Source: SAR202 cluster bacterium bin87 (GTDB lineage Bacteria; Chloroflexota; Dehalococcoidia; Lucifugimonadales; UBA3495). From it: 46,767 nucleotides of DNA. The notes under the pieces were generated by a model, which saw only the letters and a list, made by a program, of their open reading frames with translations, searched no databases and was not told the DNA's origin. The position numbers and the translations under genes were made by a program. This document shows positions 1-46,766 of the stretch, piece by piece; the stretch's first letter is position 1, and the number at the start of each line of letters is the position of its first letter. The stretch spans positions 1 through 46,767 of the forward strand of contig MPNC01000019.1 of NCBI GenBank assembly GCA_002238825.1. Direction: 5' to 3'.

Positions 1-2
1 GG

Positions 3-266
3 GACAGCGGCACCCTGCGGGGCAAGCGGGCCGTCTGGGGCGGGCGCGCCCGAGTACGAGCCATTTTGTATATGGGAGCGATGGTAGCCAGCCGTCACAA
101 CCCGGTCATCCGCGACTTCTACCAGAAACTGCTGGCAGCCGGTAAGCCGAAGAAGGTGGCACTCGTCGCGTGCATGCGCAAACTGCTGGTCATACTCAAC
201 TCCATGCTCAAACACGGCTCCCCGTGGTGCGATATGACACAGCCAGAAGTCGCTCATTCCTATTGA
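3..266 (+). CDS. IS110-family transposase, C-terminal end (cut by window edge)
   Basis: This is an open frame from the left edge to a TGA. It reads as the C-terminal part of an IS110/IS116/IS902 transposase (Transposase_20 region). The conserved run includes RVRAILYMGA, ASRHNPVIRDFY and GKPKKVALVACMRKLL, ending shortly after MLKHGSPW as is usual. IS110 enzymes are DEDD recombinases guided by a bridge RNA. Only the C-terminal Ser-containing domain is visible. The element's right end must lie just after the stop, because SNF2-helicase homology starts within about 50 bp. The insertion therefore seems to have removed the helicase N-terminus. The rest of the transposase lies outside the window, so whether it is intact is unknown. 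Confidence 0.8.
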   Translation, partial: DSGTLRGKRAVWGGRARVRAILYMGAMVASRHNPVIRDFYQKLLAAGKPKKVALVACMRKLLVILNSMLKHGSPWCDMTQPEVAHSY

Positions 267-309
267 CATTAAAGACAGTTGCTACCGGACTCGACCCGCC
301 ATTGCCCTC

Positions 310-4470: not shown

Positions 4471-4642
4471 ACGTAATGACCCTTATGCGAACCACGGCGG
4501 GTATCAATAGGGCGGAGGATGGCGGAACGGCGCACGGGTAAGTCATCTCCACGGATGCTTTGCGGCGGAACTTCGAAATGGTGCTGGCCGTGGGTGCACA
4601 AAATGCTGATGTTTCGGTAACATTTCTGAATGAGGCAACAGG
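4471..4642. repeat. IS-end-like dispersed repeat, copy 1
   Basis: About 170 bp here align with 8277-8450 over their whole length. Shared landmarks are ATCAATAGGGCGGAGGA, GATGCTTTGCGGCGG, and the terminal CGGTAAC followed by TGAGGC(A/G)ACAGG. The last 35 bp also match the right end of the IS at 28498-30133 (TTTCGGTAACATT, then TGAGGCAACAGG). On the minus strand both copies keep a similar reading frame (PPQSI, then ILRPID/VLRPID), so a small decayed coding segment may be included. Best read as a remnant of an IS related to, but not identical with, the 28.5-kb element. Confidence 0.5.
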
Positions 4643-4657
4643 CCCCCTCAGCACCCC

Positions 4658-4686
4658 GCGACAATCACCTCTTCGGTGGATTGGGG
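4658..4686. mobile_element. Solitary IS1380-type terminal repeat
   Basis: TTCGGTGGATTGGGG followed by TTTAG matches the right termini of the two IS1380-like elements (GCGGTGGATTGGGG at 21686-21699, TCGGTGGATTTGGG at 23979-23992). The 15 bp inside it are also similar to the 21.7-kb copy. No transposase remains on the left, so this is an orphan end left by a deletion. Confidence 0.5.
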
Positions 4687-4812
4687 TTTAGCTGCGATAC
4701 ATGGAGTGTACGAGGCCGGGGATAGTGCCGAAGCCGAATAAGCAAACCTATACACGGTGTAAACTGACGGAGCCTTGGGCGGAGTACTGCTAGAGGTGAA
4801 CAACCTACCAGA

Positions 4813-5361: not shown

Positions 5362-5449
5362 AAGACGCGAGAGGCGCCACTGCGGGAATAAATGCGGAGA
5401 CGGGTGGACTGAATCCCAGCTCACTGGGTTCAATTTGGTCTGGGAGGGG

Positions 5450-5668
5450 AACGTTGGCCTTGCCGCCCTCTTCGATCATCTTGCGGAACTGTGGGCGGTC
5501 AGGGATGCGCCGGCTCTGGGCGTCGTCCACCTACTCTGGCGCGATGGAGTAGCCGTTCTTCTCGGCGTAGTCCCCCAAGGCCCGCAACTGGGTGGCCACT
5601 GAGAGGTCAACGTCCTAGCGGTCGCTGTATACCCGGGCGTACAGCGCCGCCGGGGTCAGGGGTTGGAA
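5450..5668 (-). pseudogene. Serine recombinase N-terminal remnant with two in-frame TAG codons
   Basis: Read leftward from about 5668, one frame gives ALYARVYSDR, stop, DVDLSVATQLRALGDYAEK, then GYSIAPE, stop, and VDDAQSRRIPDRPQFRKMI. This is the N-terminal catalytic domain of a large serine recombinase; the catalytic Ser is the one in YSDR. Both stops are TAG. One stands where RQD (CAG) is expected and the other where a Tyr is usual. Homology fades after KMIEEGGKANVP. The start codon lies at or beyond the Tn3-type inverted repeat at 5675, so the 5' end was cut by that insertion. Inactive relic. Confidence 0.65.
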
Positions 5669-5674
5669 CTGCTC

Positions 5675-6084
5675 GGGTCGACTCCGGTAAGGGGCAGAAT
5701 CGTACGCTAACGCCGCCAAATCTGTTATCGCGCTTTGGCCACCGGTATTCGCTGGTGAGAATGATGTGAGCAACGAGCTCGGGCTCGACCGTCAGGCCGG
5801 CGTGTTGCCGCTGTCTGACTGCTTCGCCGAGATGGGCGATATTCCAGGAAATGACGATGGCGGTGAGCAGGTTGAGCCCGGCCATGCGGTAGTGCTGCCC
5901 TCGCTGGGGCGGTCGCGGATTTCGCCCTGGCGTCCGATCCGGAGCGCGCTCTTGAGCGCGTGATGAGCCTCGCCATTGTTCATTCCGCTACGCGCGGCGC
6001 TGTCCGTAAGGAGACCGTCTATCGCACACTTAACCGTCACTTTGTTCCTTAGCGTACGATTCTGCCCCCTACCGGAATCGACCC
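5675..6084. mobile_element. Miniature Tn3-derived element (TIME-like), 410 bp
   Basis: Two 37-bp near-identical inverted repeats bound this segment, 5675-5711 and 6048-6084. Each has an outer GGGTCGA(T/C)TCCGGTA and an inner GAATCGTACGCTAA. The outer GGG and inner CTAAG, and the 37-38 bp length, are hallmarks of Tn3-family ends. The same repeat occurs at 46374-46410. Between the ends only a decayed 3' segment of tnpA remains. Tn3-derived miniature elements of this type can be moved by a related transposase. The 5-bp flanks (TGCTC left, TATTA right) do not match, so no target duplication is left. Confidence 0.65.
5725..5986 (-). pseudogene. tnpA: Tn3-family transposase (tnpA) C-terminal remnant
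   Basis: Inside the miniature element, the minus strand reads MNNGEAHHALKSAL and GRQGEIRDR in one frame. After a frame change near 5885 it reads MAGLNLLTAIVISWNIAHL and VEPELVAHIILTSEYRWPK in another. These match the last 100 residues of Tn3 transposases: NKGE, GEIRDR, SGLNLLxAAIxxWNTxYL, PDxLLAHxSPL. The catalytic DDE residues are upstream and lost. At least one frameshift and a missing stop show it is dead. Its place with the 3' end facing the repeat is the normal Tn3 layout. Confidence 0.65.
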
Positions 6085-6285
6085 TATTAGGGTTGATCCG
6101 GCCGGTTTTGCGGCACGCCGGCCTCCGATTTACAATAACTGCGTCGCGTGGTTGTGGCCTCTGCGGGACACCCCCTTTAGCTCGGCTCGGCCGCCCGCAG
6201 GATAACCGTTGTGGGCGGCCATCGTATTGGCGCCGCCCTCCAGGTACAGTCCAGGGGACGGACAGTTCAGCGGGGAGAGTATTTC

Positions 6286-19989: not shown

Positions 19990-21699
19990 CCCGAATCCAC
20001 CGAAGGGATGCGGAGGTGCCGGTCAGACGAGGGACCGGGTCCAGTGAATGGATTTGCGAGGCCCTGATGCCGATAGAAATGGACGGTGCGGAGTGCGGCT
20101 GCCACGCCAGGGGGATTTTGACGGCCCGTGGTAGCGACGCTGGGAGCGATTTTCAGTGCCGACCGGAGGCGGAGGGCGTCAGGGGCCCAGCCTGACGCAG
20201 GTCGGCCAGGCGGTGGGTAATCCGGTGGAGGGGTCGGACGCCATGAATGGCGTCAGGATGGAAGGGGTAGGGCGCGCAGTTTGGCGAGAGCGCTGCTGAA
20301 CTGGTTTTGCCAGGGCCAGCCCTGAGGGAGATGCAGGGTGATGCGGCGTGCCTTGCGGGTGATGCGTCCGGCCAGGGAGAAGAAACGTCGCCTGAGGGTC
20401 TTGGTGGTGATCACCGGCTCGCCCAGACCGATGCGTGTGGTCCAGCGGGCCAGATTATGGGCCAGCACCTGCACTGCCAGCCAGGCGGCGTTGGCGGCGA
20501 AACGGCCCGAGGGGAGATGATTGAGCCCGACGCCGTACTTGAGATCGCGGATGGCGTTCTCGATCTCGGCGTGGCGGCGATGGTCGGCCTCCAGGTACAG
20601 GGTGTCGCCGTCCCGGTCGGTGATGAAGGCGTGATAGCTGTAGTCGGCAAGCAGCGCAAGTTGGGAGCCGGGCGTGGGCTGCACCCTTCGTACAATGAGA
20701 CGCACCGCCACGGCATCGGGCTCATGCTGGAAAGGAACGTAGGTTGTCTCGGCCACGTCGGCAGCGCCCTCCATCCAGTACGGGATGGGTGTCCAGTCCG
20801 CCTCGGGTATGGCTTCGATGATGTTGCGCAGGCTCTGGTGCTGTCGGGCGGTGATGGAGAAACGGACCTTCGCCTTGCGGCAGGCGGCGACGATGTCGTG
20901 GGTGTAGAAGCCGCTGTCGGCCCGCAGGGTGAGTTGACCGGTGGCACCGGCGTAGCGCACGCGGCTCACCGTCTCCCGCAGGAAGTGGGCGGCGCCCCGG
21001 GCGGTGTTGGCCCGTCCCTTGCGCAGCCGTGCCATCAGCACCTCTCCGGTGCCCGCAGCCACGGCGAACAGCGGGTGATAGCCCCGCTGACCAGCGTAGT
21101 TGTGGCTCTGTGCGCCCTCCTTGGCAAGACCGTAAGTCTCGCAGACGGTGGAATCAAGGTCGATGGTGAACGGATCATCGCCTGGTCCGTCCCCAACAGC
21201 CCAGGCCCCAGCCAGAAACTCACGGCCCACCCGATCCAACTGGCGCACATGGCCCCACCGGGAGCTGCACAGAAAGGTAGCCAGCGTGGATAGCGCCTTG
21301 ACCACGCAGCCCAGCACCCGCCCAACCCCACCAGCGCGCATCGCGTCGGCGTCGTCAATGCAGTCGCCACCGGCCAATGCCGACGCCACCAGGGTCAACA
21401 GTTTGTCTCCAGCATTGGCTCGACCCGGCGCATCTTCCAGGTCAACATGGTTGTCCACCAGCTCGCACAATCCCAGGCGGTGGGCCATCGTGACTGGAAG
21501 CAGCAGTCCGGCATTAGCCACCAGGCGGTGGTCATCGAAGGCGACTTGGATGCGGTCGGGGTCGTTGCGTGGTAGCATCCGTTGGGTGCACCTCGTTTCG
21601 GGTAGGTTTTCTTTGTCAAAAACCATTATCCCCGAAGCGCAGGAGGACTTTTCCATCCCCTCGGCGCACCGCCACACTCATCTTTGCGGTGGATTGGGG
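19990..21699 (-). mobile_element. IS1380-family element, copy A
   Basis: The element is about 1710 bp. Left end CCCGAATCCACCGA (19990-20003) and right end CGGTGGATTGGGG (to 21699) are inverted copies matching copy B. It carries one leftward transposase. Flanking 5-mers are CTAAT (left) and CTTAG (right), which are not identical. Different flanks and an hsdM 3' remnant directly at the right end suggest an adjacent deletion or recombination between IS copies after insertion. Confidence 0.75.
20253..21578 (-). CDS. IS1380-family transposase, copy A
   Basis: The product has 441 residues; ATG at 21578 (MLPRNDPDRIQ) is chosen to agree with the same start and length in copy B. It is a DDE transposase of the DDE_Tnp_1 / IS1380 type. 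Acidic residues are seen in IDLDST, RADSGF and the Glu-rich HAEIENAIRDLKYG block, and the typical YHPLFAVAAGTGEVL segment is present. It is roughly 90 percent identical to copy B by eye. No frameshift or internal stop is seen, so it may be active. An upstream in-frame extension (MWRCAEGMEKSS) reads through the IS leader and is not supported. Confidence 0.85.
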   Translation of the reverse strand: MLPRNDPDRIQVAFDDHRLVANAGLLLPVTMAHRLGLCELVDNHVDLEDAPGRANAGDKLLTLVASALAGGDCIDDADAMRAGGVGRVLGCVVKALSTLATFLCSSRWGHVRQLDRVGREFLAGAWAVGDGPGDDPFTIDLDSTVCETYGLAKEGAQSHNYAGQRGYHPLFAVAAGTGEVLMARLRKGRANTARGAAHFLRETVSRVRYAGATGQLTLRADSGFYTHDIVAACRKAKVRFSITARQHQSLRNIIEAIPEADWTPIPYWMEGAADVAETTYVPFQHEPDAVAVRLIVRRVQPTPGSQLALLADYSYHAFITDRDGDTLYLEADHRRHAEIENAIRDLKYGVGLNHLPSGRFAANAAWLAVQVLAHNLARWTTRIGLGEPVITTKTLRRRFFSLAGRITRKARRITLHLPQGWPWQNQFSSALAKLRALPLPS

Positions 21700-21957: not shown

Positions 21958-22283
21958 GAATTCCGAACCCGTTCAAGCGGATAGACTCGCAGTCATTGGT
22001 GGTGCGCCTGAGCCTTCCAGGCGCCGCCTCCGTTTCATGGACTGCAACGTTCAAGAATGCCGACAAGCTCGCGGCTTGGGAGCTGTATGTCGAGATGTCC
22101 ACAACGGTCCTCACCCAACCGTTGGGAGACAATGACGGGGACGAACAATCGGCACTCAGTAGCCTATACTCGATATTCGAGACCACTCGTGAGGTACTCC
22201 GACGATATGGGCCTCCTTCCTATGAATGCAGCAAGGTCTCCATCACGATGCTGAACCGGGCAATACGCCCTTTTACTGCTAAG

Positions 22284-23992
22284 CCCCAATCCACCGAAAA
22301 GATGAGCGTGTCGGTGTCGTGAAGCGATAAGAAAGTGCTCCCGGCTTCGGGGATAATGGTTTGTGAAATAGCAAACCGCCCTGAAACAAGGAGCACCCAT
22401 CGGATGCTATCACGCAACGACCCTGACCGCATACAAATCGCCTTTGATGATCACCGCTTGGTGGCCAACGCTGGGCTGCTGCTTCCGGTCACCTTGGCCC
22501 ACCGCCTGGGACTGGGCGAGCTGGTGGACCACCATGTTGACCTGGGAGATGCGCCAGGTCGGGCGAACCCGGGCGATAAGATGATGACCCTGGTGGCGTC
22601 GGCGCTGGCCGGTGGCGACTGCATCGACGACGCCGACGCGCTGCGCGCTGGGGGAACCGAGCAGGTGCTGGGTTGCGTGGTCAAGGCGCCATCCACGTTG
22701 GGAACCTTCCTGCGGAGTTTCCGGTGGGGCCACGTGCGGCAGTTGGATCGGGTGAGCCGGGAGCTGCTGGCTCTGGCCTGGTCCGCTGGTGCGGGACCGG
22801 GCGATGATCCGTTGACCATCGACCTGGACTCCACGGTCTGCGAGACCTTTGGGTTGCTCAAGGAGGGCGCGCGCGACCATAACTACGCCGGCCAGCGAAG
22901 CTATCACCCGCTGTTGGCCGTGGCTGCGGGCACCGGAGAGGTGCTGATGTGTCGGCTACGCAAGGGACGAGCCAACACGGCTCGGGGCGGTGCCCACTTC
23001 TTGCGGGAGACGGTGAGCCGAGTGCGCCACGCCGGCGCCACCGGTCCACTCACCATGCGTGCCGACAGCGGCTTCTACACCCACGACATCGTCGCCGCCT
23101 GTCGCAAGGCGAAAGTCCGTTTCTCCATCACCGCCCGCCAGCACCAGACCCTGCGCAACATCATTGAGGCCATACCCGAGGCAGACTGGACGCCCATCCC
23201 GTACTGGATGGAGGGCGCTGCCGACGTGGCCGAGACAACCTACGTTCCTTTCCAGAGTGAGCCTGATGCCGTGCCGGTGCGGCTCATCGTGCGAAGGGTG
23301 AAGCCCACACCCGGCTCCCAACTTGCGCTGCTTGCCGACTACAGCTATCACGCCTTCATCACCGACCGGGATGGCGACACCCTGGACCTGGAGGCCGACC
23401 ATCGCCGCCACGCCGAGATCGAGAACGCCATCCGCGATCTCAAGTACGGCGTGGGGCTCAACCACCTGCCCTCGGGACGCTTCCCCGCCAACGCCGCCTG
23501 GCTGGCCGTACAAGTACTGGCACACAATCTCGCTCGCTGGACCACGCGCATCGGTCTGGGCGAACCGGCAGTAACCACCAAGACCCTCCGGCGACGCTTC
23601 TTCTCCCTGGCGGGACGCATCACCCGCAAGGCACGCCGCCTCACTCTGCACCTGCCACAGGGCTGGCCCTGGCAGAACCAGTTCAACTCCGCCCTCGCCA
23701 AACTGCGCGCCCTGCCGCTCCCTTCCTGACCCCAACCACGGCGTCTGACCCGTCCGCCAGACTATCTACAGGCTTGGCTGTCCCGCGTCAGGCCGGTCCC
23801 TGTGGTCTCCTGCTGCAATCCGACCGCTGATCTTGCCCGTCGCCGGCACCGCGGTCCGCCAAAATCCCCTTGGCGTGGCTATTACACCCTATGCCCAGCC
23901 GGATTGGAGCAGGTCAAGGCCGCGCCGCCTCGATCCGGCTCCTCTCATCCCTGGCTTCCTCGCGGTGACCAGACCCTGTCGGTGGATTTGGG
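22284..23992 (+). mobile_element. IS1380-family element, copy B, with 5-bp target duplication
   Basis: The element is 1709 bp. Terminal inverted repeats are CCCCAATCCACCGA (22284-22297) and TCGGTGGATTTGGG (23979-23992), one mismatch in 14. CTAAG flanks both sides (22279-22283 and 23993-23997), a perfect 5-bp target duplication. Both ends and the duplication are intact, so this insertion is recent compared with copy A. Confidence 0.85.
22404..23729 (+). CDS. IS1380-family transposase, copy B
   Basis: The product has 441 residues. ATG at 22404 (MLSRNDPDRIQ) is preceded by AAGGAG (22387-22392). Longer in-frame starts (GTG 22335, ATG 22356) lack a binding site. It carries the same DDE landmarks as copy A: IDLDST, MRADSGF and HAEIENAIRDLKYG. 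The frame is uninterrupted and ends LRALPLPS like copy A, so the enzyme is probably functional. Differences from copy A are scattered single substitutions, which suggests two independent arrivals or some time since duplication. Confidence 0.88.
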   Translation: MLSRNDPDRIQIAFDDHRLVANAGLLLPVTLAHRLGLGELVDHHVDLGDAPGRANPGDKMMTLVASALAGGDCIDDADALRAGGTEQVLGCVVKAPSTLGTFLRSFRWGHVRQLDRVSRELLALAWSAGAGPGDDPLTIDLDSTVCETFGLLKEGARDHNYAGQRSYHPLLAVAAGTGEVLMCRLRKGRANTARGGAHFLRETVSRVRHAGATGPLTMRADSGFYTHDIVAACRKAKVRFSITARQHQTLRNIIEAIPEADWTPIPYWMEGAADVAETTYVPFQSEPDAVPVRLIVRRVKPTPGSQLALLADYSYHAFITDRDGDTLDLEADHRRHAEIENAIRDLKYGVGLNHLPSGRFPANAAWLAVQVLAHNLARWTTRIGLGEPAVTTKTLRRRFFSLAGRITRKARRLTLHLPQGWPWQNQFNSALAKLRALPLPS

Positions 23993-27910: not shown

Positions 27911-28061
27911 ATGAAGTGGACTCCCTTCCCATCGTGCCAGTCGCGCAGTTTCCGATGTCCAGCTGATGTGAAAAGCTATGGTCACCTCTGTAATTTTAGC
28001 AGTGAGTTCAATGGAATTTCAGAATGGTCCGGGTTTGGTTTGTCCTCAATGCGGGCGTACA

Positions 28062-28455
28062 GTCCGCTTCGGGTATGGCCTCGATGATGTTCCGCAGGCT
28101 CCGGTGTTGTCGGACGGTGATGGAGAAATGGTCAACGGATCATCGCCGGGTCCCGCCCCAGCGGCCCAGGCTCCAGCCAGCAACTCCTGGCGCACCCGAT
28201 CCAACTGGCACACGTGGCCCCAACTGAAACTCCTCAGGAAGGTCCCCAGCGTGGACGGCACTTTCACCATGCAGCCCAGCGCACTATCGGTACTGCCGGT
28301 ACGCAGCGCGGCGGCGGCGGCGATGTAGTCGCCACCGGCCAGCGCCAGACGCCACCAGGGTCAGTAGCTTGTCCCCCGCGTTCGCCCGACCCGGCGCATC
28401 TCCCAGGTCAACGAAGTGGTCCACCAGCTCGCCCCAGTCCCAGCTACCAGACTGA
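28062..28455 (-). pseudogene. IS1380-family transposase remnant with internal deletion
   Basis: Minus strand reads WGELVDHFVDLGDAPGRANA, DKLLTLVAS, then (frameshifted) VKVPSTLGTFLRSF, WGHVCQLDRV and GPGDDPLTI. It then jumps to FSITVRQHRSLRNIIEAIPE in another frame. Compared with the intact copies about 400 bp between DDPLTI and FSITxRQH are missing, and both ends are gone. The IS at 28498 lies directly at its 5' side. Dead relic. Confidence 0.75.
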
Positions 28456-36430: not shown

Positions 36431-39400
36431 TTAACGCCCTTCATTGGTGGGGCTCACGTCCATCACGCGGACGGCGATCCGACGCCTTTCCGAATCGGTC
36501 AGTTGCTCTTCCAGCCGCTGCTGCAGCTCGGCAGGGCCGGTGGGCCGCCGGCCCTGGGGGGGCGCTGGGATCTTCCCGTCGCCAAACCAGAACACGAGGT
36601 AGACACCGTGGCCGCCAGTCTCAGGGTCGATGGTGTATTGCGCGATCAGCTGGTCGTGGAGCGCGCTCCATAGCCTGGGGTCCCGGTCCCGCTTGATTCC
36701 CACCGGCACGTTGAATCCACCATAGGAAACACCGATGTCGGCCCGCCTGTCGTTGGCGTACTCAACCTCGGGCCGGGCGATGACCCCGATGGGAAGCACG
36801 CCGCGCAGATGGGAAAGCAGGGTATCCCGGCAGTCAGCCTCAATCCTCGGAGATTCCGGACGGCCGTAAGCGCCGCCGGTATTCCAGTACTGCTTCCAGA
36901 CGTCGATGTCGCTAGTGCGGATCCTCTCGGCGAGCCTCTCCAGGGAATGGACCAACAGAGCAGCCAGATCCACAGCATTGGCCGGAGCTTTGTTGCTGAG
37001 AGTCTCTCGAACCTGATCGACGGTCGGATGTTGGTATGAAGCATCCCGGTGGATAACCCGCTGTTGGGCTCGGACCCGTTCCAGCATAGCGCGCCACTTA
37101 GACAGCGCGTCATCGTCGACCAGGGCGTCCAGCGCCTGCGCTGCGTCGTCGCTGCTTAGGGACGCCAACCGACGTATCAGCCGGTCGACCTGCTCCGAGG
37201 CGCGCATCTCGGGGGTTACCCGAACGGCGGACTCGACGGGATCGAAGGTTCGGCCCATGGGATCGAAGGTTCGGCCCATCAGATTGATGAGGCTCTGCAG
37301 GGTTCGTGAGTCCAGGCTCTCCACCAGGAAGGGCAGACTTTCGTCTGGAGAGAAAAAATCCGCCATCTTCCTGATCCGATCATCCTTACCCTCGACCAGA
37401 CTTTCGAGGGGTTCGAGATAGATTCCCGGAGCCATGATGACTCCGGCCGCCAGCCAGTGAATTCGCTGGGCCAAGTTCAGGCTCCTACAGGAAAGCTTCT
37501 CTTCCAGCAACTCTTGCAGGGCCGTCCGGTCGGCGTGCTGCAGGGCAGCCCACAGCAGTTCGTCCAGCGTCTCGAGTTGGCGTAGGCTGCAACGGAGGGG
37601 AAATGATGCCAGGAGACGCGGAGTGGCGTATGTGGCGACTCGGCGGTGGCTCTTCTGGCGGACGAGTTGATACAGTTCGGGAACATACTCGTTGCCGCCG
37701 CGAATTGACGGGACTGCGCACTGCACCAGCACATCCGCCACGAGTTCGGGACGCAGGTCAAGCCATCTCAGATACCACCGGGGATCGGTGGTCCGGCCGG
37801 TGGGTGTGCAGTAGTAGAAGGCCAGAGCCTGCCGCATCCGGAGGGCGCTCAGCCCTTCCAGTTCATCCGGTTCTGCTCGGTCAACTTCGTCCATGCCGGC
37901 GAGGAACGCCGGACCCAGCGGATGGAAACGTGAGTCCACGAACAGCTGGATAATCTCCGCAACCTCCGGAATGTCCTGGCGCCCAACAGTGCCCCTGAGC
38001 CCGGCCTTCGCCGCTTCGACCAGGTCGGCACTCTGCAGAACACCCTCAAGCCCCCTTTCAGAAGCGATATTGGGCGCGGCAAACGGGAAATGGCCGAAGT
38101 ACGCCATGCCGATTCCGAACAGCAACCGGGGGGAGGCCCGGTTCTCCCGCAAGGCGTCCGCGTTGTCTCGAACGAGGTCTATCCACCGTTGTCTCTCACG
38201 GTCAATTTGAGACCGGTTCGTATCGGCCGCGCGCGGCGGACTGGGGGCTGGGATGTTGGGCGGCGCCAACAACTCCGCCAATCGTTGTCGGAGGACCTCA
38301 TGCTCGAGGGTACGTTCCTCCAACACTGCCTTGGACAATCCTTGCCCCCCGGTCGCGCGGTCGCAGTAGTGGACGGCCTGACGCAGCAGTTGATCCGCTA
38401 TTTTGGGGTTCTCATCAAAGGCGGCAATAGCGGTATCCAAGCACCATAGTCCGAAGTCCGGTGGAGGATCGCTGCCATGCAGGCGGTGCCAGACCTCGCT
38501 GGCGCAGAGGTCGAATCCGCCGTCGTCCGGACAGCGGTTCAGGCCTTCCAGAAAAACTGCCTTCTGGACGTCGGAGCGACGCTCCAGCCAAACTCGGATT
38601 TCGGTCGCGGAGTCGTCCGTGAGCGAGGGAGGATCCCAGAACGGGTAGCAGGCTGCGTCCAGCCAATCGTAGAGACGAGCCGGGTTCTGTTCATCCCCCA
38701 ACCTGTGAAGGGCTCTGGATAGGAGCCGTAGCGGGAGGTTTTCCAGGTGATAAACCCTGAAGGTCGCGCGCAGGTCAGGCATCAAACGGCCCAGACCATC
38801 TAGGAGCTCCGCGACATCTCCGTCCGACGATCGCTGTAGTAGCCGCCAATGCCAGAAGGCAAAATACGCTCCGATCAGGTCCACATTCCCCTTGTCAACG
38901 AGGTGCCCCCAGATCTGCGAGGGGAGTATCCCCCGAGGATACAGACGGGCCAACAGTTTGCCCAGCAGTTCGTTATCGGGATCTGCAATTTCTCCGCTCT
39001 CAATCTCGCCCAGTAGCTGCTTGAGTTGTTCTGTGCCGTCTGGCAACGCAGCAGAGATGTGGATGAGCGCGTTGAGTGCGGCGGCGGTAACCCTGGGCCA
39101 TCGGCTATCGTCATGCACCGCCTGCAGCAACTCCGGGAAGAGACCGGTCAGCGGAGGTCCATCCTGCAGTACACGCAACAGGAACTCGGTAACCAACTGA
39201 TGGTCCGTGTCACGGCGTTGATCTTGCAGGAATCCCCGGAGGGTGCATTCCATATCGGAGGACGCCAAGGCGCCGAATGCCGAGGCATGTACACCGTGGT
39301 CCGCCACCTCACGGTTCATGGCCAGCAGAAGCCTGCTCTTGTTCTCCACGGAAAACCCCTGGAGGTCGCCGTAAAGCCCCACACCGACCGGGTCGCTGTC

Positions 39401-40501
39401 AATCAGTTGCTCGCGAGCGTCCGGACAAAGAGCTGCCAGCCACGCGGACAGCCCTCTAAGCACGGTGACCACAACACCGTCGCCGGCCGTGATCATGGCC
39501 AGGATGCGGGCGACGGGCAGACCGCCGTCAACTAGCTGGGTGAGGTATCTGGCGCCCAGAAACTCCGCAATGTGACGGTGCGCCGGCACGAAACGTCCGC
39601 TACCGACGCTTGAGAACAGCCTTGTGGCCAGGACGCGTTGCTCTGTCAGGCTTGTCCCATCATCCGAGTGGTCGAGATGGATGTAGTCGGCGTCGGTCTC
39701 GTGGTAGTTGATGGAGCACCCTGCTGCTCCCGATATCAAAAGGTGAGCACAGAGCAGGCCCGCCATGTGTAACAGCTGCTCAGGGTGAGGCGGTGGGCCT
39801 GCGGCAACGTGTTCTTCGTTGAACTCGGTGGCCATCTGACGGCAGGCCATTTCAAAAGTCCGCAGCCGGCTCTCCGGCCAACCGTGGCCACCGCCCACAG
39901 CTTTGGCCAACAGGTCCAGGGTCAAGGGGTTGTTGAGCAGGCCGTCGACGCGGTTATCCTTCGCGTCGGCCACGAACTGGTGAGGGTCATCAACAGCGGG
40001 GTGGGCATTCAGCACTCGCTCAACGTCAGCATCGGTAAGGGGATCGAGCCGGGCTACCGCCACCCTGCCGTCCTGGACAACCGCCTCCAGCCTGCTCCGG
40101 TCGTTCTCTCCGAGCCAATCCGCCTCTCGGCATGAGATCCTGAACCTGGGGCATCCCAAAATCTCCAAACGGCTCCTGATGTTATCCAAGGCCTGACGGC
40201 GGTCCCCCGAACCGACGCGCATCTCGTCCAATCCGTCAATGAAGAGAACCGGGCCTTGCCACTCGGGATGGCTGTCCACATTGAGGGTGAGAAAATCCCG
40301 GGCGGAAACCAGCTTGGCCTGCGACCCAAGGGCTTTGGTCTCGGTCCTGAATGCGGTGCTCTTGCCCGACCCCGGGTCGCCGAGCAGGACGTAGGCCGGC
40401 TCCTGCCTCAGGGCTTCCAGAGGTCCGGAGGCCGGTTCACGACGCTGGCGCTCAGCTTCCGATAGCACTTCGGTCCAGGTCCGCTGGATGATGACGGTCA
40501 T
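36431..40501 (-). CDS. Giant NACHT-type NTPase with degenerate nuclease-like C-terminus
   Basis: The product has 1356 residues. ATG at 40501 overlaps the upstream stop (ATGA). NTPase: Walker A GDPGSGKS (41-48), VLFIDGLDE (85-93), then RFRISCREADW and the helical NACHT/STAND extension (FVPAHRHIAEFLGARYL). The middle 800 residues are helical repeats. The C-terminal 110 residues resemble a PD-(D/E)XK-like domain: RADIGV (Asp1255), VPVGIKRD, QLIAQYTIDPETGGHGVYLVFWFG. In relatives of this pattern EIK is expected; here Gly1268 replaces Glu before Ile-Lys1270. STAND NTPases such as Avs detect phage proteins through the repeats and fire the effector. The Gly may inactivate cleavage. The DUF4143 ATPase is its coupled partner. 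Confidence 0.75.
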   Translation of the reverse strand: MTVIIQRTWTEVLSEAERQRREPASGPLEALRQEPAYVLLGDPGSGKSTAFRTETKALGSQAKLVSARDFLTLNVDSHPEWQGPVLFIDGLDEMRVGSGDRRQALDNIRSRLEILGCPRFRISCREADWLGENDRSRLEAVVQDGRVAVARLDPLTDADVERVLNAHPAVDDPHQFVADAKDNRVDGLLNNPLTLDLLAKAVGGGHGWPESRLRTFEMACRQMATEFNEEHVAAGPPPHPEQLLHMAGLLCAHLLISGAAGCSINYHETDADYIHLDHSDDGTSLTEQRVLATRLFSSVGSGRFVPAHRHIAEFLGARYLTQLVDGGLPVARILAMITAGDGVVVTVLRGLSAWLAALCPDAREQLIDSDPVGVGLYGDLQGFSVENKSRLLLAMNREVADHGVHASAFGALASSDMECTLRGFLQDQRRDTDHQLVTEFLLRVLQDGPPLTGLFPELLQAVHDDSRWPRVTAAALNALIHISAALPDGTEQLKQLLGEIESGEIADPDNELLGKLLARLYPRGILPSQIWGHLVDKGNVDLIGAYFAFWHWRLLQRSSDGDVAELLDGLGRLMPDLRATFRVYHLENLPLRLLSRALHRLGDEQNPARLYDWLDAACYPFWDPPSLTDDSATEIRVWLERRSDVQKAVFLEGLNRCPDDGGFDLCASEVWHRLHGSDPPPDFGLWCLDTAIAAFDENPKIADQLLRQAVHYCDRATGGQGLSKAVLEERTLEHEVLRQRLAELLAPPNIPAPSPPRAADTNRSQIDRERQRWIDLVRDNADALRENRASPRLLFGIGMAYFGHFPFAAPNIASERGLEGVLQSADLVEAAKAGLRGTVGRQDIPEVAEIIQLFVDSRFHPLGPAFLAGMDEVDRAEPDELEGLSALRMRQALAFYYCTPTGRTTDPRWYLRWLDLRPELVADVLVQCAVPSIRGGNEYVPELYQLVRQKSHRRVATYATPRLLASFPLRCSLRQLETLDELLWAALQHADRTALQELLEEKLSCRSLNLAQRIHWLAAGVIMAPGIYLEPLESLVEGKDDRIRKMADFFSPDESLPFLVESLDSRTLQSLINLMGRTFDPMGRTFDPVESAVRVTPEMRASEQVDRLIRRLASLSSDDAAQALDALVDDDALSKWRAMLERVRAQQRVIHRDASYQHPTVDQVRETLSNKAPANAVDLAALLVHSLERLAERIRTSDIDVWKQYWNTGGAYGRPESPRIEADCRDTLLSHLRGVLPIGVIARPEVEYANDRRADIGVSYGGFNVPVGIKRDRDPRLWSALHDQLIAQYTIDPETGGHGVYLVFWFGDGKIPAPPQGRRPTGPAELQQRLEEQLTDSERRRIAVRVMDVSPTNEGR

Positions 40502-41754
40502 GACCCTTCGAACCAATGCTCGGCCGGCTCGCTCAGAAACTCGTTCAGAGGTATTCCGTCTGCCCCCACCACAAGCGAGCTGACGGGATGGTACTGCTTT
40601 TCGAACTCCGCCATACCAGAGGTGCTGCGGCGCTGTGGGCCGCTCTTCACCTCGACGGCGACGACGCGACGACCTCGTTGAAGCACGAAATCGACCTCAT
40701 GCTGTTTGTTGCGCCAGTACCGAATGTCGATGTCGGAGGCTGCGGTGTTGCACAGGTGCGCGCCCACGGCGCTCTCGACCACCCTTCCCCAGAAGGTACG
40801 GTCGGCCCTGGCTTCGTCGAATGAGTACCCAGACCCGGCGGTCATCAGGGCGGTGTTCAACACGTTGAGCTTGGGGCTCGACCCCCGGCTGCGGTGCGCT
40901 TGATTGGAATGATTGGATAGGCCGGTGAGAAGGCCGGCGCTGGTCAGAAGATCCAAATACCGAGCCAGGGTGGTCGTATTGCCGGCGCCTTGGAGCTGCC
41001 CCAGCATCTTGTTGTATGACAGCACCTGGCCGGAGTAATCAGTCCCGAGCTCAAATAGCTGTTTCAACAGCGCCGGCTTGTCCACCCGGGTCATGGCCAG
41101 AATGTCTCGCTCGATGTTGGGCTGCACGAGGGACTGTTGCACATAATCGCGCCACCGCCCTTCATCCCGCAGCAAGGATGCGGCGCCAGGGTACCCACCG
41201 AAATACAGGTATTCGTCCAGATCGAGGCCGAATGCCTGATACATCTCGGGAAACGACCAGTGGGCCACTCGGATGGTTTCAAAGCGTCCGGCCAAGCTCT
41301 CGCTCAACCCTGTCTGGAGCAAGAGTGGCGCCGACCCCAGGATGACCACGTGGAGAGGATACTCTCGAGCCCGGTCGTCATCCCACAGACCTTTGACCGC
41401 TTCCGACCAGCCCGGCACCTTCTGGATCTCGTCCAAGACCAGTACGAAACTCGCGCCAGTCCGTTCGACCTGCAGTCTGGCCCTCTCCCAATTGAGGGCC
41501 AACTGCTCGGTGGTGGGCGTTTGGGTCGACTGAATAAACACGCGACCAATCAGTTCAGGGGCAAGGGGCAACCGTGAGAAGGCAGGATCATCGACCGACA
41601 GGTAAAGGTTATCCAGTTCAATCTGCTGAAGCGCCTGCCGCACCATGGTGGTCTTCCCGGTCTGGCGTGGACCGGACACCGCAATAATCCGGCTGGGAGG
41701 CTCGGCCAACCGATGGGCGATGACATCAACCTGGGCGCGTTGGAAGGGAGGCAT
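40498..41754 (-). CDS. AAA_14/DUF4143 ATPase
   Basis: The product has 418 residues (MPPFQRAQVDVIAHRL). N-terminal AAA ATPase: Walker A SGPRQTGKTT (27-36) and Walker B FVLVLDEIQKV (about 102-112), then ILGSAPLLL and the SLAGRFE arginine-finger segment. Central FPEMYQAFGLDLDEYLYFGGYPG is the family hallmark. The C-terminal DUF4143 domain has a PD-(D/E)XK-like strand pair (HEVDFVLQRG, RVVAVEVKSG). Members are common and their role is unclear; here the last 4 bp overlap the start of the NACHT gene, so the two are made together. It starts the leftward operon. The upstream region is AT-rich. Confidence 0.8.
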   Translation of the reverse strand: MPPFQRAQVDVIAHRLAEPPSRIIAVSGPRQTGKTTMVRQALQQIELDNLYLSVDDPAFSRLPLAPELIGRVFIQSTQTPTTEQLALNWERARLQVERTGASFVLVLDEIQKVPGWSEAVKGLWDDDRAREYPLHVVILGSAPLLLQTGLSESLAGRFETIRVAHWSFPEMYQAFGLDLDEYLYFGGYPGAASLLRDEGRWRDYVQQSLVQPNIERDILAMTRVDKPALLKQLFELGTDYSGQVLSYNKMLGQLQGAGNTTTLARYLDLLTSAGLLTGLSNHSNQAHRSRGSSPKLNVLNTALMTAGSGYSFDEARADRTFWGRVVESAVGAHLCNTAASDIDIRYWRNKQHEVDFVLQRGRRVVAVEVKSGPQRRSTSGMAEFEKQYHPVSSLVVGADGIPLNEFLSEPAEHWFEGS

Positions 41755-44013: not shown

Positions 44014-46019
44014 TGCCAACCTATTACAACCTCCGGGGAGAACCCATCTCGCTGGGCGACGTGCTCGGCTCCGGCGGCCAGGCCGACGTTTACGCCGTCG
44101 TCGGCAAGCCGGATACCGCGGCCAAAGTCTATAAAGATGGGAAAGCTCCCTTCAACATTGACCGCAAGCTCCGCCTGATGCTGGACGGTCCGCCCGATCA
44201 AGGCGCCGCCGGCCACCGGCACATCGCCTGGCCCAGCGACCTGCTGCTGAACGAACGTGGCCGTGTGGTCGGTTTTCTGATGCCCCGCGTGTCGTCGGGG
44301 GACAGCGGTAAAATAATCAACTTCTACCACCCCGCTCGCCGCCCTCCCGGGTTCAATTATCGTTACCTGATACAGACGGCGCACAACCTCGCCGTTGCGG
44401 TGGAATCTCTCCACCGGCAGGGCTACGTTATCGGAGACATTAACGAGTCGAACGTCTTCGTCAACGACCAGGCCCTGGTGACGCTGGTTGACGCCGACTC
44501 ATTCCAGGTCAGCGACGTTGGGAGCAAAACAGTCTATCTCTGCCCCGTTGGCCGCCCGGAATACACGCCGCCCGAATTGCACGGCAGCGACTTTCGCCGC
44601 ACTGTACGCACCTCCCACCATGACGGCTTCGGGCTGGCGGTCCTCATCTTTCAACTGCTGATGCAGGGCCGCCATCCCTATCACGCCAGGTATGCCGGCG
44701 ACGAACCGGATGAGCCGCAGCCGGAACTCTCACTTCGCGTCGCCGCCGGCAACTTTCCCTACACCAAGCGCCCCGGACAGGCGCCCTATGTTCCGAATGA
44801 ACTCTGCCGCCGCTTGTGGGATGCCCTTCATCCACAGCTGCGAGCTCGTTTTCTCAGTTGTTTTGACCAGCCCATTCGAGACTCCGTAGCGCGTCCCTCC
44901 GCGTCCAACTGGCGCGGCGCCCTTGACGCCGCCATCCATGACCTGACGCAGTGCGAAGGTAACGAGCAACACTGGTATTTCAAGCACAACGGAACCTGCA
45001 CCTGGTGCGAACTGGCGCAGGAGCAGGGGACAGACCGGTTCCCGCCCTTTCGTTCGAGCAGCCACGACGCGCAATACTATTTAAATCGTGGCGACGACAA
45101 GCTTGAAAGGGACGACTACGATGGTGCCATCGCCGATTACAACCAAGCTATCTTGCTGAACCCCAACGACAGGTTGGTCTACTTCCATAGTGCTCGTGCC
45201 TACTACAACCGAGGCAGTGTCAGATGGGAAAAGGGTGATCGAGACGGGGCCATCGCCGACTACGACGAAGCCATCGCCCTGAGACCCAACTACGCGACGG
45301 CCTACTACAACCGAGGCCTTGCCAAAAGGTACAAGCGAGATTACGACGACGCCATCTCCGATTACGACCAGGCCATCGCCCTGGACCCCAACTACGCGGC
45401 AGCCTACAACAATCGAGGCGTTGCCAAAGAGTACAAGCGAGATTACGACGGCGCCATCTCCGATTACGACCAGGCCATCGCCCTGAGACCCAACTACGCG
45501 GCAGCCTACAACAATCGAGGCGTTGCCAAAGAGTACAAGCGAGATTACGACGGCGCCATCTCCGATTACGACCAGGCCATCGCCCTGAGACCCAACTACG
45601 CGACGGCCTACTACAACCGAGGCCTTGCCAAAAGGTACAAGCGAGATTACGACGGCGCCATCTCCGACTACAACCAGGCCATCGCCCTGAGACCCAACTA
45701 CGCGGCAGCCTATCGTAGCCGAGGCATTCTCAAAGAGTACAAGCGAGATTACGACGGCGCCATCTCCGATTACGACCAGGCCATCGCCCTGGACCCCAAC
45801 TACGCGACGGCCTACTACAACCGAGGCAATACCAAAAGGTACAAGCGAGATAACGACGGCGCCATCTCCGATTACGACCAAGCCATCGCCCTGGACCCCA
45901 ACTACGCGGCAGCCTATCGTAGCCGAGGCCTTCTCAAAGAGTACAAGAGGGACGCTGACGGGGCTGTCGCGGATTACAGCCGGGCCGACGCTTTGCAGCG
46001 GAAATATAAGGGCGAATGA
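44013..46019 (+). CDS. Protein kinase fused to nine TPR repeats
   Basis: The product has 668 residues; ATG at 44013 overlaps the PP2C TGA (a GTG 3 bp upstream is in frame). Kinase domain (about 10-315): glycine loop LGSGGQADVY (18-27), Lys38, catalytic GDINESN (Asp142, Asn147) and VDADSF (Asp160/Asp162) in the DFG place. A CxxC-like knuckle (CTWC, about 330) links to nine 34-residue TPRs (about 352-668) of the form NRGxAKxYKRDYDGAISDYDQAIALRPNY. Kinases in TerY-P triads usually have other C-termini; a TPR array would supply partner binding. Repeats 4 and 5 are identical in DNA, so the array is still expanding or being homogenised. Confidence 0.8.
   Translation: MPTYYNLRGEPISLGDVLGSGGQADVYAVVGKPDTAAKVYKDGKAPFNIDRKLRLMLDGPPDQGAAGHRHIAWPSDLLLNERGRVVGFLMPRVSSGDSGKIINFYHPARRPPGFNYRYLIQTAHNLAVAVESLHRQGYVIGDINESNVFVNDQALVTLVDADSFQVSDVGSKTVYLCPVGRPEYTPPELHGSDFRRTVRTSHHDGFGLAVLIFQLLMQGRHPYHARYAGDEPDEPQPELSLRVAAGNFPYTKRPGQAPYVPNELCRRLWDALHPQLRARFLSCFDQPIRDSVARPSASNWRGALDAAIHDLTQCEGNEQHWYFKHNGTCTWCELAQEQGTDRFPPFRSSSHDAQYYLNRGDDKLERDDYDGAIADYNQAILLNPNDRLVYFHSARAYYNRGSVRWEKGDRDGAIADYDEAIALRPNYATAYYNRGLAKRYKRDYDDAISDYDQAIALDPNYAAAYNNRGVAKEYKRDYDGAISDYDQAIALRPNYAAAYNNRGVAKEYKRDYDGAISDYDQAIALRPNYATAYYNRGLAKRYKRDYDGAISDYNQAIALRPNYAAAYRSRGILKEYKRDYDGAISDYDQAIALDPNYATAYYNRGNTKRYKRDNDGAISDYDQAIALDPNYAAAYRSRGLLKEYKRDADGAVADYSRADALQRKYKGE
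45294..46007 (+). repeat. Tandem 102-bp coding repeats (TPR array)
   Basis: Units begin at 45294, 45396, 45498, 45600, 45702, 45804 and 45906. The units at 45396-45497 and 45498-45599 are identical at all 102 positions. The others differ by a few bases in the NNRGVAKE and DPNY parts. The unit equals 34 codons and stays in frame, so copy number can change without breaking the kinase gene. Confidence 0.85.
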
Positions 46020-46056: not shown

Positions 46057-46373
46057 CTAGTTCGCCGTAATCGTCGCCGCCGCGGTGGTTGCGGCGTCCG
46101 CGACGGGCTGGTTGGTGCGTGGGGCCACCTCGAAGGGTGAGTAGATCTCCAGCTCCTTGCCCATCTCGAGGACGGCGGGGATGACTTCCTCGCCCATGAG
46201 CCGCAGGTTGCGCATCTGGTCCTCATGGGTCATGATGCCGTCGCCGTCCCAGAAGAAAACGCTACCGGGGCGCAGGTATTCCAGCACCTCGCGGATCTTG
46301 AAGATCACCGTCTTGGGTGTGCCCGTGATGATCGTGCTGTAGGCCACCGGGTCTTCGTAGGGCCGGCAGTTGC
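46057..46373 (-). pseudogene. Luciferase-like (LLM-class) flavin monooxygenase, C-terminal fragment
   Basis: Minus frame reads RPYEDPVAYSTIITGTPKTV, FKIREVLEYLRPGSVFFWDG, and HEDQMRNLRLMGEEVIPAVL to a TAG at 46057. GTPxxVIxKI, WDGxGxMxHED and RLMGEEVIP are the C-terminal signature of bacterial luciferase-like F420/FMN monooxygenases. The sequence stops at the Tn3-type inverted repeat starting at 46374, so the TIM-barrel N-terminal two-thirds is separated by the transposon and lies, if anywhere, beyond the window. The last residues are Ala/Thr-rich. Confidence 0.7.
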
Positions 46374-46410
46374 GGGTCGATTCCGGTAGGGGGCAGAATC
46401 GTACGCTAAG
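46374..46410. mobile_element. Tn3-family terminal inverted repeat
   Basis: The 37 bp begin GGGTCGATTCC and end TCGTACGCTAAG, nearly identical to the ends of the miniature element at 5675-6084 and identical to 6048-6084 in inverse. The inner CTAAG side faces the resolvase at 46436. This is therefore the left end of a transposon that continues past the window edge. Confidence 0.75.
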
Positions 46411-46435: not shown

Positions 46436-46766
46436 TTAGACGGTTGGTCTTGAAACGGAGAAGAGCTCGGCAAGGTCGCTGATGGGATACTCGCCGGTGG
46501 CGTGCATGCGGGAGAGTTCCCGCTGCTGACGGTCGGACAGTTTGGGCTGCTTGCCGCGCAATTTCCCCTTGGCGCGGGCGATGGCCATGTCCTCGCGGGT
46601 GCGCATCCGGATGAGATCGGCTTCGAACTCGGCGAAGGTAGCGAGGATATTGAAGACCATCTTGCCCATGGGATCGTCCGGGTCGTAGAGCGCCGGGCCC
46701 AAGGCAAGTCTCATGCCTCGTTCCTGAAGCTGGTCGGCGATGGCGCGGGCATCCGGAACGGACCTG
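46436..46766 (-). CDS. tnpR: Tn3-family serine resolvase, C-terminal part (cut by window edge)
   Basis: At least 110 residues are visible. They read VPDARAIADQLQERGMRLAL, then DPDDPMGKMVFNILATFAEFE, ADLIRMRTREDMAIARAKGK, and a C-terminal helix-turn-helix SDLAELFSVSRPTV ending at TAA. It belongs to the resolvase/invertase family; the catalytic Ser lies beyond the edge. The protein ends early after SRPTV compared with usual SRxTVYR tails, and the stop lies 26 bp from the inverted repeat. It would resolve cointegrates of the transposon whose end is at 46374. Confidence 0.75.
   Translation of the reverse strand, partial: RSVPDARAIADQLQERGMRLALGPALYDPDDPMGKMVFNILATFAEFEADLIRMRTREDMAIARAKGKLRGKQPKLSDRQQRELSRMHATGEYPISDLAELFSVSRPTV

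What the first reader, a model, noticed from the sequence alone, without database searches (positions are those of the whole stretch)
5675..6084. Tn3-derived miniature element with same ends as the transposon at 46374
Paired 37-bp repeats and a dead tnpA tail make a 410-bp non-autonomous element. The matching repeat at 46374 starts a larger transposon with a resolvase. The two could be mobilised by one transposase and could together move the 40 kb between them.
Basis: partly seen in the sequence, partly recalled or inferred. Interest (0 to 1): 0.52.

Follow-up and report, generated by a model that had tools for sequence, protein, structure and literature searches.

The report
Tn3-derived miniature transposon (TIME) relic
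A 410-base "hollowed-out" transposon, one of a family of such leftovers scattered through an uncultured bacterium's genome, is real but of a known kind, and the evidence does not show that it helps to move the 40 kb beside it; nearby, another mobile element appears to carry an RNA guide that spells the ends of these very transposons.

Summary
Window 5674-6084 is a Tn3-derived miniature element (a TIME): 36-bp inverted repeats (34/36 complementary), a broken tnpA 3' end on the left, about 40 bp of the tnpA-tnpR intergenic region, and the tnpR 3' end on the right. The same end opens at 46373, with a tnpR tail that the contig end cuts off. The genome holds at least 20 such ends, but only tnpA fragments. 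Complete relatives are 3.7-kb Tn3 transposons of Rhodobacteraceae. Deletion junctions shared with other loci and other species suggest spread as a non-autonomous element served in trans.

The "moves 40 kb together" idea is not supported. No target duplication exists. The flanks of 5674-6084 do not belong to one ancestral site. No assembled end carries the missing half of either interrupted gene. The right transposon is unassembled.

Unexpected: window 1-282 is the end of an IS110-family element lodged inside a fourth TIR of this family (283-298). Intact copies in a sister species have a 5' leader in which both halves of the TIR target appear as perfect candidate bridge-RNA guides. Analogues (IS4321/IS5075 in Tn21 ends) are known. 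New member of a known kind.

The parts
5674..6084 (.). Tn3-derived miniature element (TIME), 411 bp with the outer C
5674..5710 (+). left TIR (tnpA-side end)
5711..5977 (-). tnpA 3'-end remnant (last part of PF01526), frame broken and with an internal gap
5978..6019 (.). remnant of the intergenic (res) region between tnpA and tnpR; tnpA junction at GTTCA (5978), tnpR junction at ACCGTC (6014-6019)
6020..6048 (+). tnpR 3'-end remnant
6049..6084 (-). right TIR (tnpR-side end); the usual outer base is changed here
5442..5673 (-). 5' part of a decayed serine-recombinase gene cut by the left TIR
46373..46409 (+). TIR of a second element (tnpR-side end)
46436..46714 (-). tnpR 3' part (resolvase + HTH_7); the gene continues past the contig end
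46057..46372 (-). 3' part of a luciferase-like monooxygenase gene cut by the second element
283..298 (-). outer 16 bp of a further TIR of the same family, split by an IS110-family element
1..282 (+). right end of an IS110-family element (97.7% to intact copies in a sister species); the contig starts inside it

Best explanation
5674-6084 is a TIME: the two ends of a Tn3-family transposon (order TIR-tnpR-res-tnpA-TIR) left after two internal deletions, one removing most of tnpA, one removing most of tnpR and part of res. It has no transposase of its own. When a matching TnpA was present it could be copied by paste-and-copy transposition in trans; in the assembled genome no intact TnpA is left, so it should now be immobile unless one arrives or is unassembled. 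After or during insertion the site was rearranged (adjacent deletion by intramolecular transposition, or recombination between copies), so its two flanks no longer belong together. The end at 46373 belongs to a second, tnpR-bearing member that the contig end cuts; a shared 40-kb mobile unit is not indicated. Shown: anatomy, family, other copies, shared junctions, mismatched flanks, lack of an intact tnpA in the assembly. Inferred: trans-mobilisation, the rearrangement mechanism, present immobility.
For: TIRs and Tn3 parts. 20 TIR ends in the fetched parts of the genome. Five paired elements in the genome: 410, 2475, 1312, about 1125 and 241 bp. Piecewise mapping on complete 3.7-kb relatives. 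Transposase relatives 76-90% identical in aa, mostly Rhodobacteraceae. The tnpR-deletion junction (ACCGTC) is shared by the 410-bp element, C17_241, C54_47347, C37_15621 and, in another species, G012_421. The tnpA-deletion junction (TTGTTCATTCCGC) is shared by the 410-bp element and a 1.2-kb element of sister species G010 (the 410 bp has ATT for CTT just before it). TIRs are better conserved than the adjacent interior: 92% vs 81% over 10 tnpA-side ends, 87% vs 79% over 8 tnpR-side ends. In 4 of 8 relatives' loci the recombinase gene aligns to exactly 5673 and runs on into sequence absent right of 6084; 6085-6320 matches none of 20 fetched stretches. At C42 the same insertion exists in G010, with 128 bp more flank on the tnpA side, consistent with an adjacent deletion in this genome.
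Against: Shared junctions lie at short direct repeats (8-bp CGGCGCTG, 6-bp ACCGTC, 5-bp GTTCA), so recurrent independent deletion is possible; tnpA breakpoints differ among members that share the tnpR junction, so a member may still have had tnpA when it spread. No target duplication at any of 7 paired elements examined, although only 6 of 40 paired relatives of the family show a perfect one, so this is weak. The Pfam hits of the tnpA tail are below the curated cut-off frame by frame.
Confidence: 0.82

Rival explanations
1. Dead relic by decay in place: each miniature copy arose from a full transposon at its own site by deletion between short repeats, and none ever moved without its own transposase.
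For: Short direct repeats at the junctions; tnpA breakpoints differ between members; frameshifts in tnpR and tnpA remnants.
Against: The same tnpR junction at five loci in two species and the same tnpA junction in two species; TIRs better conserved than interiors.
Confidence: 0.28
2. Composite (TIME-COMP-like): the 5674 end and the far end of the 46373 transposon moved the 40 kb between them as one unit.
For: Correct orientation of the outer left end; near-identical TIRs; TIME-COMPs exist; 26.4-46.4 kb is not syntenic in three sister genomes, as expected of accessory DNA.
Against: If it had inserted as a unit into the recombinase gene, the partner end should carry the rest of that gene; none of the 20 ends does. 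The rest of the gene cut at 46372 was found at no TIR end either. The largest TIME-COMP in the table read is 11.4 kb. The two left-hand boundaries, 5673 and 46372, each cut a different gene, as two separate insertions would.
Confidence: 0.05
3. The mosaic flanks were made by the IS110-family element, or by homologous recombination between TIR copies, and not by Tn3 transposition: TIRs are its landing sites and recombine when IS110 copies do.
For: IS110 inserted in the TIR at the same base in this contig (283), in C17 and twice in G010; two of the three intact TIRs of the window are perfect guide targets.
Against: I saw no IS110 sequence at 5674, 6084 or 46373; the boundary is exactly the TIR end, as Tn3 strand transfer gives.
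Confidence: 0.12
4. Chance similarity or assembly artefact.
For: The contig starts and ends inside repeats; contigs C11 and C15 end in the same 127 bases.
Against: 0 control matches; the element lies 5.7 kb inside the contig; similar elements occur in independently assembled sister genomes, one of them a single contig.
Confidence: 0.02

Closest known systems
[quoted passage not shown] PMC4133298 (passages read)
   Same: 38-bp Tn3-type ends, no transposase, short, derived from a Tn3 transposon
TIME-RES (1186 bp, resolvase gene plus res); PMC4133298 (passages read)
   Same: Like the 1.1-1.3-kb members here (C54_1312, C17_1125, G010_1200): ends plus tnpR/res without a whole tnpA
   Different: tnpR of the members here is frame-broken where I looked
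TIME244 and TIME-COMPs; PMC13367494 (abstract, introduction and sections 14 and 15 read)
   Same: Miniature Tn3 element with part of the res region
   Different: TIME244 resembles all three res subsites and mostly sits on plasmids; this one keeps about 40 bp of the intergenic region, on a contig not shown to be a plasmid; no composite shown
3.7-kb Tn3-family transposons of Rhodobacteraceae and relatives (e.g. loci L062, L098)
   Same: Same order of parts, TIRs 6-8 mismatches from this one, DNA about 76-77% over the 46374 end
   Different: About full length (tnpA open throughout in L062, broken in L098); outer base mostly G instead of C
IS4321/IS5075 (IS1111 group of the IS110 family), which insert into Tn21 TIRs; PMC8269217 (passages), Partridge and Hall 2003 (title only, in a reference list)
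   Same: An IS110-family element whose target is the TIR of a Tn3-family transposon
   Different: Different TIR family; candidate guides lie in the 5' leader of this element

Membership tests
TIME (Tn3-derived miniature element) | Tn3-family terminal inverted repeats of about 38 bp at both ends | tested here: met
   36-37 bp, 94%; similar TIRs bound Tn3 transposons with tnpA
TIME (Tn3-derived miniature element) | Short and without a complete transposase gene | tested here: met
   410 bp; tnpA remnant only
TIME (Tn3-derived miniature element) | Interior derived from a Tn3 transposon | tested here: met
   tnpA 3', intergenic and tnpR 3' pieces mapped on relatives
TIME (Tn3-derived miniature element) | 5-6-bp target duplication | tested here: not met
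   CTGCT vs TATTA/ATTAG. It marks the insertion event, not the element, and is often lost: 34 of 40 paired relatives lack a perfect one too
TIME (Tn3-derived miniature element) | Mobilised in trans by a cognate TnpA | not testable with these tools
   Only indirect: shared junctions
TIME-COMP (composite of two TIMEs) | Two copies bounding a segment, outer ends inverted | tested here: inconclusive
   Left outer end present; right outer end not assembled
TIME-COMP (composite of two TIMEs) | Target duplication or split target at the two outer ends | tested here: not met
   No assembled end carries the other half of the recombinase gene
IS110 family (element at window 1-282) | DEDD_Tnp_IS110 plus Transposase_20 domains | tested here: met
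   E 3.6e-22 and 1.7e-19 in the intact copy L179; the window holds only the right end
IS110 family (element at window 1-282) | Bridge RNA whose guides match the target on both sides of the core | tested here: inconclusive
   8 + 8 nt perfect guides for the TIR in the 5' leader; a 73% relative in L024 does not match its own flank; no RNA shown

The most novel reading that the evidence does not exclude
In this genus an IS110-family element carries a bridge RNA tuned to the terminal inverted repeat of this Tn3/TIME family (left guide TGCCCC + core CT, right guide for CT + ACCGGA), so that it homes to and caps the ends of these transposons, blocking their movement and turning TIME ends into programmed landing and recombination sites; the left edge of this very contig is one such capped end.
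Probability: 0.5. Interest if true: 0.52.

Novelty: new member of a known kind. Interest (0 to 1): 0.33.

Why it matters
It adds a TIME family that seems to have spread within one bacterial genus while its transposase decayed, with copies that can be ordered by shared deletion junctions. The capped ends offer a natural, sequence-only test of how IS110 bridge RNAs choose a mobile target: the guide and the transposon end can be compared across species of the genus.

Tried and rejected
Target duplications of the window element and the other paired elements: none. An inversion by intramolecular transposition at C17 (both right ends followed by AAGGA): the 5-mers would have to be reverse complements, and they are not. 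Synteny of 26.4-46.4 kb in three sister genomes: scattered matches only. Plasmids: only partial matches to the tnpA tail; viral contigs: no exact TIR. Rfam: nothing for the window; a sub-threshold sX15 hit on the opposite strand of the IS110 leader (25.4 vs 55 bits), taken as chance. A paper search for miniature elements, Chloroflexi and Tn3 together returned nothing; the host was never named, and Chloroflexi was only a guess of mine. Guide control: the 73% IS110 relative in L024 has other guide letters, which do not match its own left flank; this counts against the guide reading, unless its ends are rearranged. The IS110 copies other than the window's were seen only because they sit at Tn3 ends, so 'all copies seen lie in TIRs' is biased.

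Full report
Observation. The true ends lie one base further out (CGGGTC...): 16 of 20 ends have C there, and homologous target genes stop aligning exactly at 5673 and 46372. The interior has the end of a Tn3 transposase in broken frames. At 46436-46714 lies the 3' part of a serine resolvase, but the window is a complete contig and ends there.

The family in this genome. With up to 3 mismatches the TIR occurs 12 times, 6 of them without any; the reversed control pattern occurs 0 times. In the 12 sequences read (window and L018-L028) 20 ends were found with up to 10 edits; L025 has a tnpA tail without a TIR. Paired elements are 410 bp (window), 2475 bp (C42), 1312 bp (C54), about 1125 bp (C17, left TIR interrupted) and 241 bp (C17). 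Pfam's Tn3 transposase domain gives 9 matches, all partial; the longest covers 144 of 389 positions. The transposase N-terminal model matches once, partially, inside the C42 element. So no intact tnpA is assembled.

The family elsewhere. In 60 genomes (this one and 59 relatives), 6 have the TIR and 8 have transposase matches, all partial; besides this genome these are sister species of the genus and one genome of another genus (G035). Complete relatives, about 3.7 kb, are mostly in Rhodobacteraceae; their order is TIR, tnpR reading outward, gap, tnpA reading outward, TIR. The nearest relative by protein (90%) is on a contig filed as a Gemmatimonadetes MAG, whose TIR differs at one base and also has the outer C; that genome has one such end.

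How the 410 bp arose. Mapped on L062, it is tnpA 3' end, intergenic piece, tnpR 3' end. The tnpR junction (ACCGTC) is shared with C17_241, C54_47347, C37_15621 and G012_421 of another species; the tnpA junction (TTGTTCATTCCGC) is shared with a 1.2-kb element of G010. C15start and C37 share a different tnpA junction at an 8-bp repeat; G008's 272-bp element has its own junctions. The simplest reading is descent and spread of deleted forms, hence a transposase in trans. Recurrent deletion at short repeats is the main rival. TIRs are more alike than interiors (92 vs 81%, 10 ends; 87 vs 79%, 8 ends), as expected if ends were kept by transposition while interiors drifted.

Insertion sites. The left end cuts a serine recombinase gene after its first codons: in L157 the open frame holds MKKQQFQPLTP at that place and a Resolvase domain follows; the window's copy has a stop in that frame (own reading). 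Of 8 related loci, 4 align to 5673 exactly and 4 end earlier (5660-5670); in none does the window's right flank follow. In the genus search nothing but this genome matches 6093-6264. So the two flanks are of different origin. The end at 46373 cuts a luciferase-like monooxygenase gene that is intact on C49 of the same genome and continues in the sister species read. At C42 the same insertion is present in G010 with the same left junction, and there the right flank is 128 bp longer, which fits an adjacent deletion in this genome, though G010's copy is itself truncated on that side. No paired element (5 here, 2 in sister species) has a target duplication; in the wider family 6 of 40 pairs have a perfect one, so absence is common.

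The 40-kb proposal. It needs an outer right end, unassembled here, and a split target. None of the 20 ends carries the missing recombinase 5' part or the missing part of the monooxygenase gene. The 26.4-46.4 kb stretch is not syntenic in three sister genomes, so it looks like accessory DNA, with restriction and defence-type genes in the window, but nothing ties its arrival to these ends.

An unexpected fourth end. Window 1-282 is the right end of an IS110-family element; 283-298 is the outer part of a TIR. In G010 two copies, identical over 1172 aligned bases, sit in a tnpR-side and a tnpA-side TIR at the same base; contig C17 starts in a third copy. The joint is CCCC-CT-ACCGG. The 5' leader holds TGCCCCCT and, 16 bases further on, TCCGGTAG, both inside one predicted stem-closed loop. 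These are what the bridge-RNA model asks of left and right target guides (passages of PMC11208160). Of 108,753 CT-centred 14-mers in the held sequences (overlapping loci counted again), 53 are guided by this leader, and all 53 are the TIR sequence; in 200,000 letter shuffles of the leader, an 8-letter left and a 7-letter right guide appear together in 15. Against: a 73% relative in L024 does not match its own flank, and the other copies were found because they sit at Tn3 ends. Two of the three intact TIRs of the window are perfect targets. IS4321/IS5075 do the same with Tn21 ends (PMC8269217 passages), so this is a new member of a known behaviour.

Verdict. Real, and a TIME by every feature that could be tested except the target duplication; known kind. 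Interest lies in the family history and in the IS110 guide, not in a 40-kb composite.

Noticed in passing
window 1-298; L179 4399-5570; L126 4406-5577; L020 1-284: IS110-family element inserted at the same base of this Tn3 family's TIR; its 5' leader holds two perfect 8-nt candidate bridge-RNA guides for the TIR.
   Followed up: partly
window 13513-46019: Region rich in restriction/defence-type genes: two AAA/ORC-like ATPases, a type IIG (MmeI-like) enzyme, a 5-hmdU DNA kinase-type protein, MazG_C, a SLOG + TIR-domain pair, a PP2C phosphatase next to a kinase-TPR protein.
   Followed up: partly
window 20208-21638 and 22344-23774; remnant 28053-28434: Two inverted copies (87%) of a DDE_Tnp_1_4 transposase gene 705 bp apart, plus a fragment of a third.
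   Followed up: no
window 36431-40516: A 1361-aa ORF with no Pfam match at 1e-5, next to a DUF4143 ATPase (PADLOC candidate PDC-S01).
   Followed up: no
L019 1746-1810; L019 15621-16030; window 4648-4692 and 22278-22322: A second repeat family (GCTAAGCCCCAATCCACCGAA...) is fused to the inner edge GCTAAG of the Tn3 TIR in two places on C37, as if recombined there.
   Followed up: no
L024 4363 and L028 4825: Two Tn3-derived ends are inserted at slightly different points of the same 1.5-kb repeat (91% identical flanks).
   Followed up: no
window 45096-46007: Seven overlapping register copies of a 300-nt unit spaced 102 bp (TPR-coding repeats) in the kinase-TPR gene.
   Followed up: no
L024 about 4510-4545: Perfect 30-bp palindrome GGATTGACATTCAATATTGAATGTCAATCC at the edge of an IS110 relative.
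   Followed up: no
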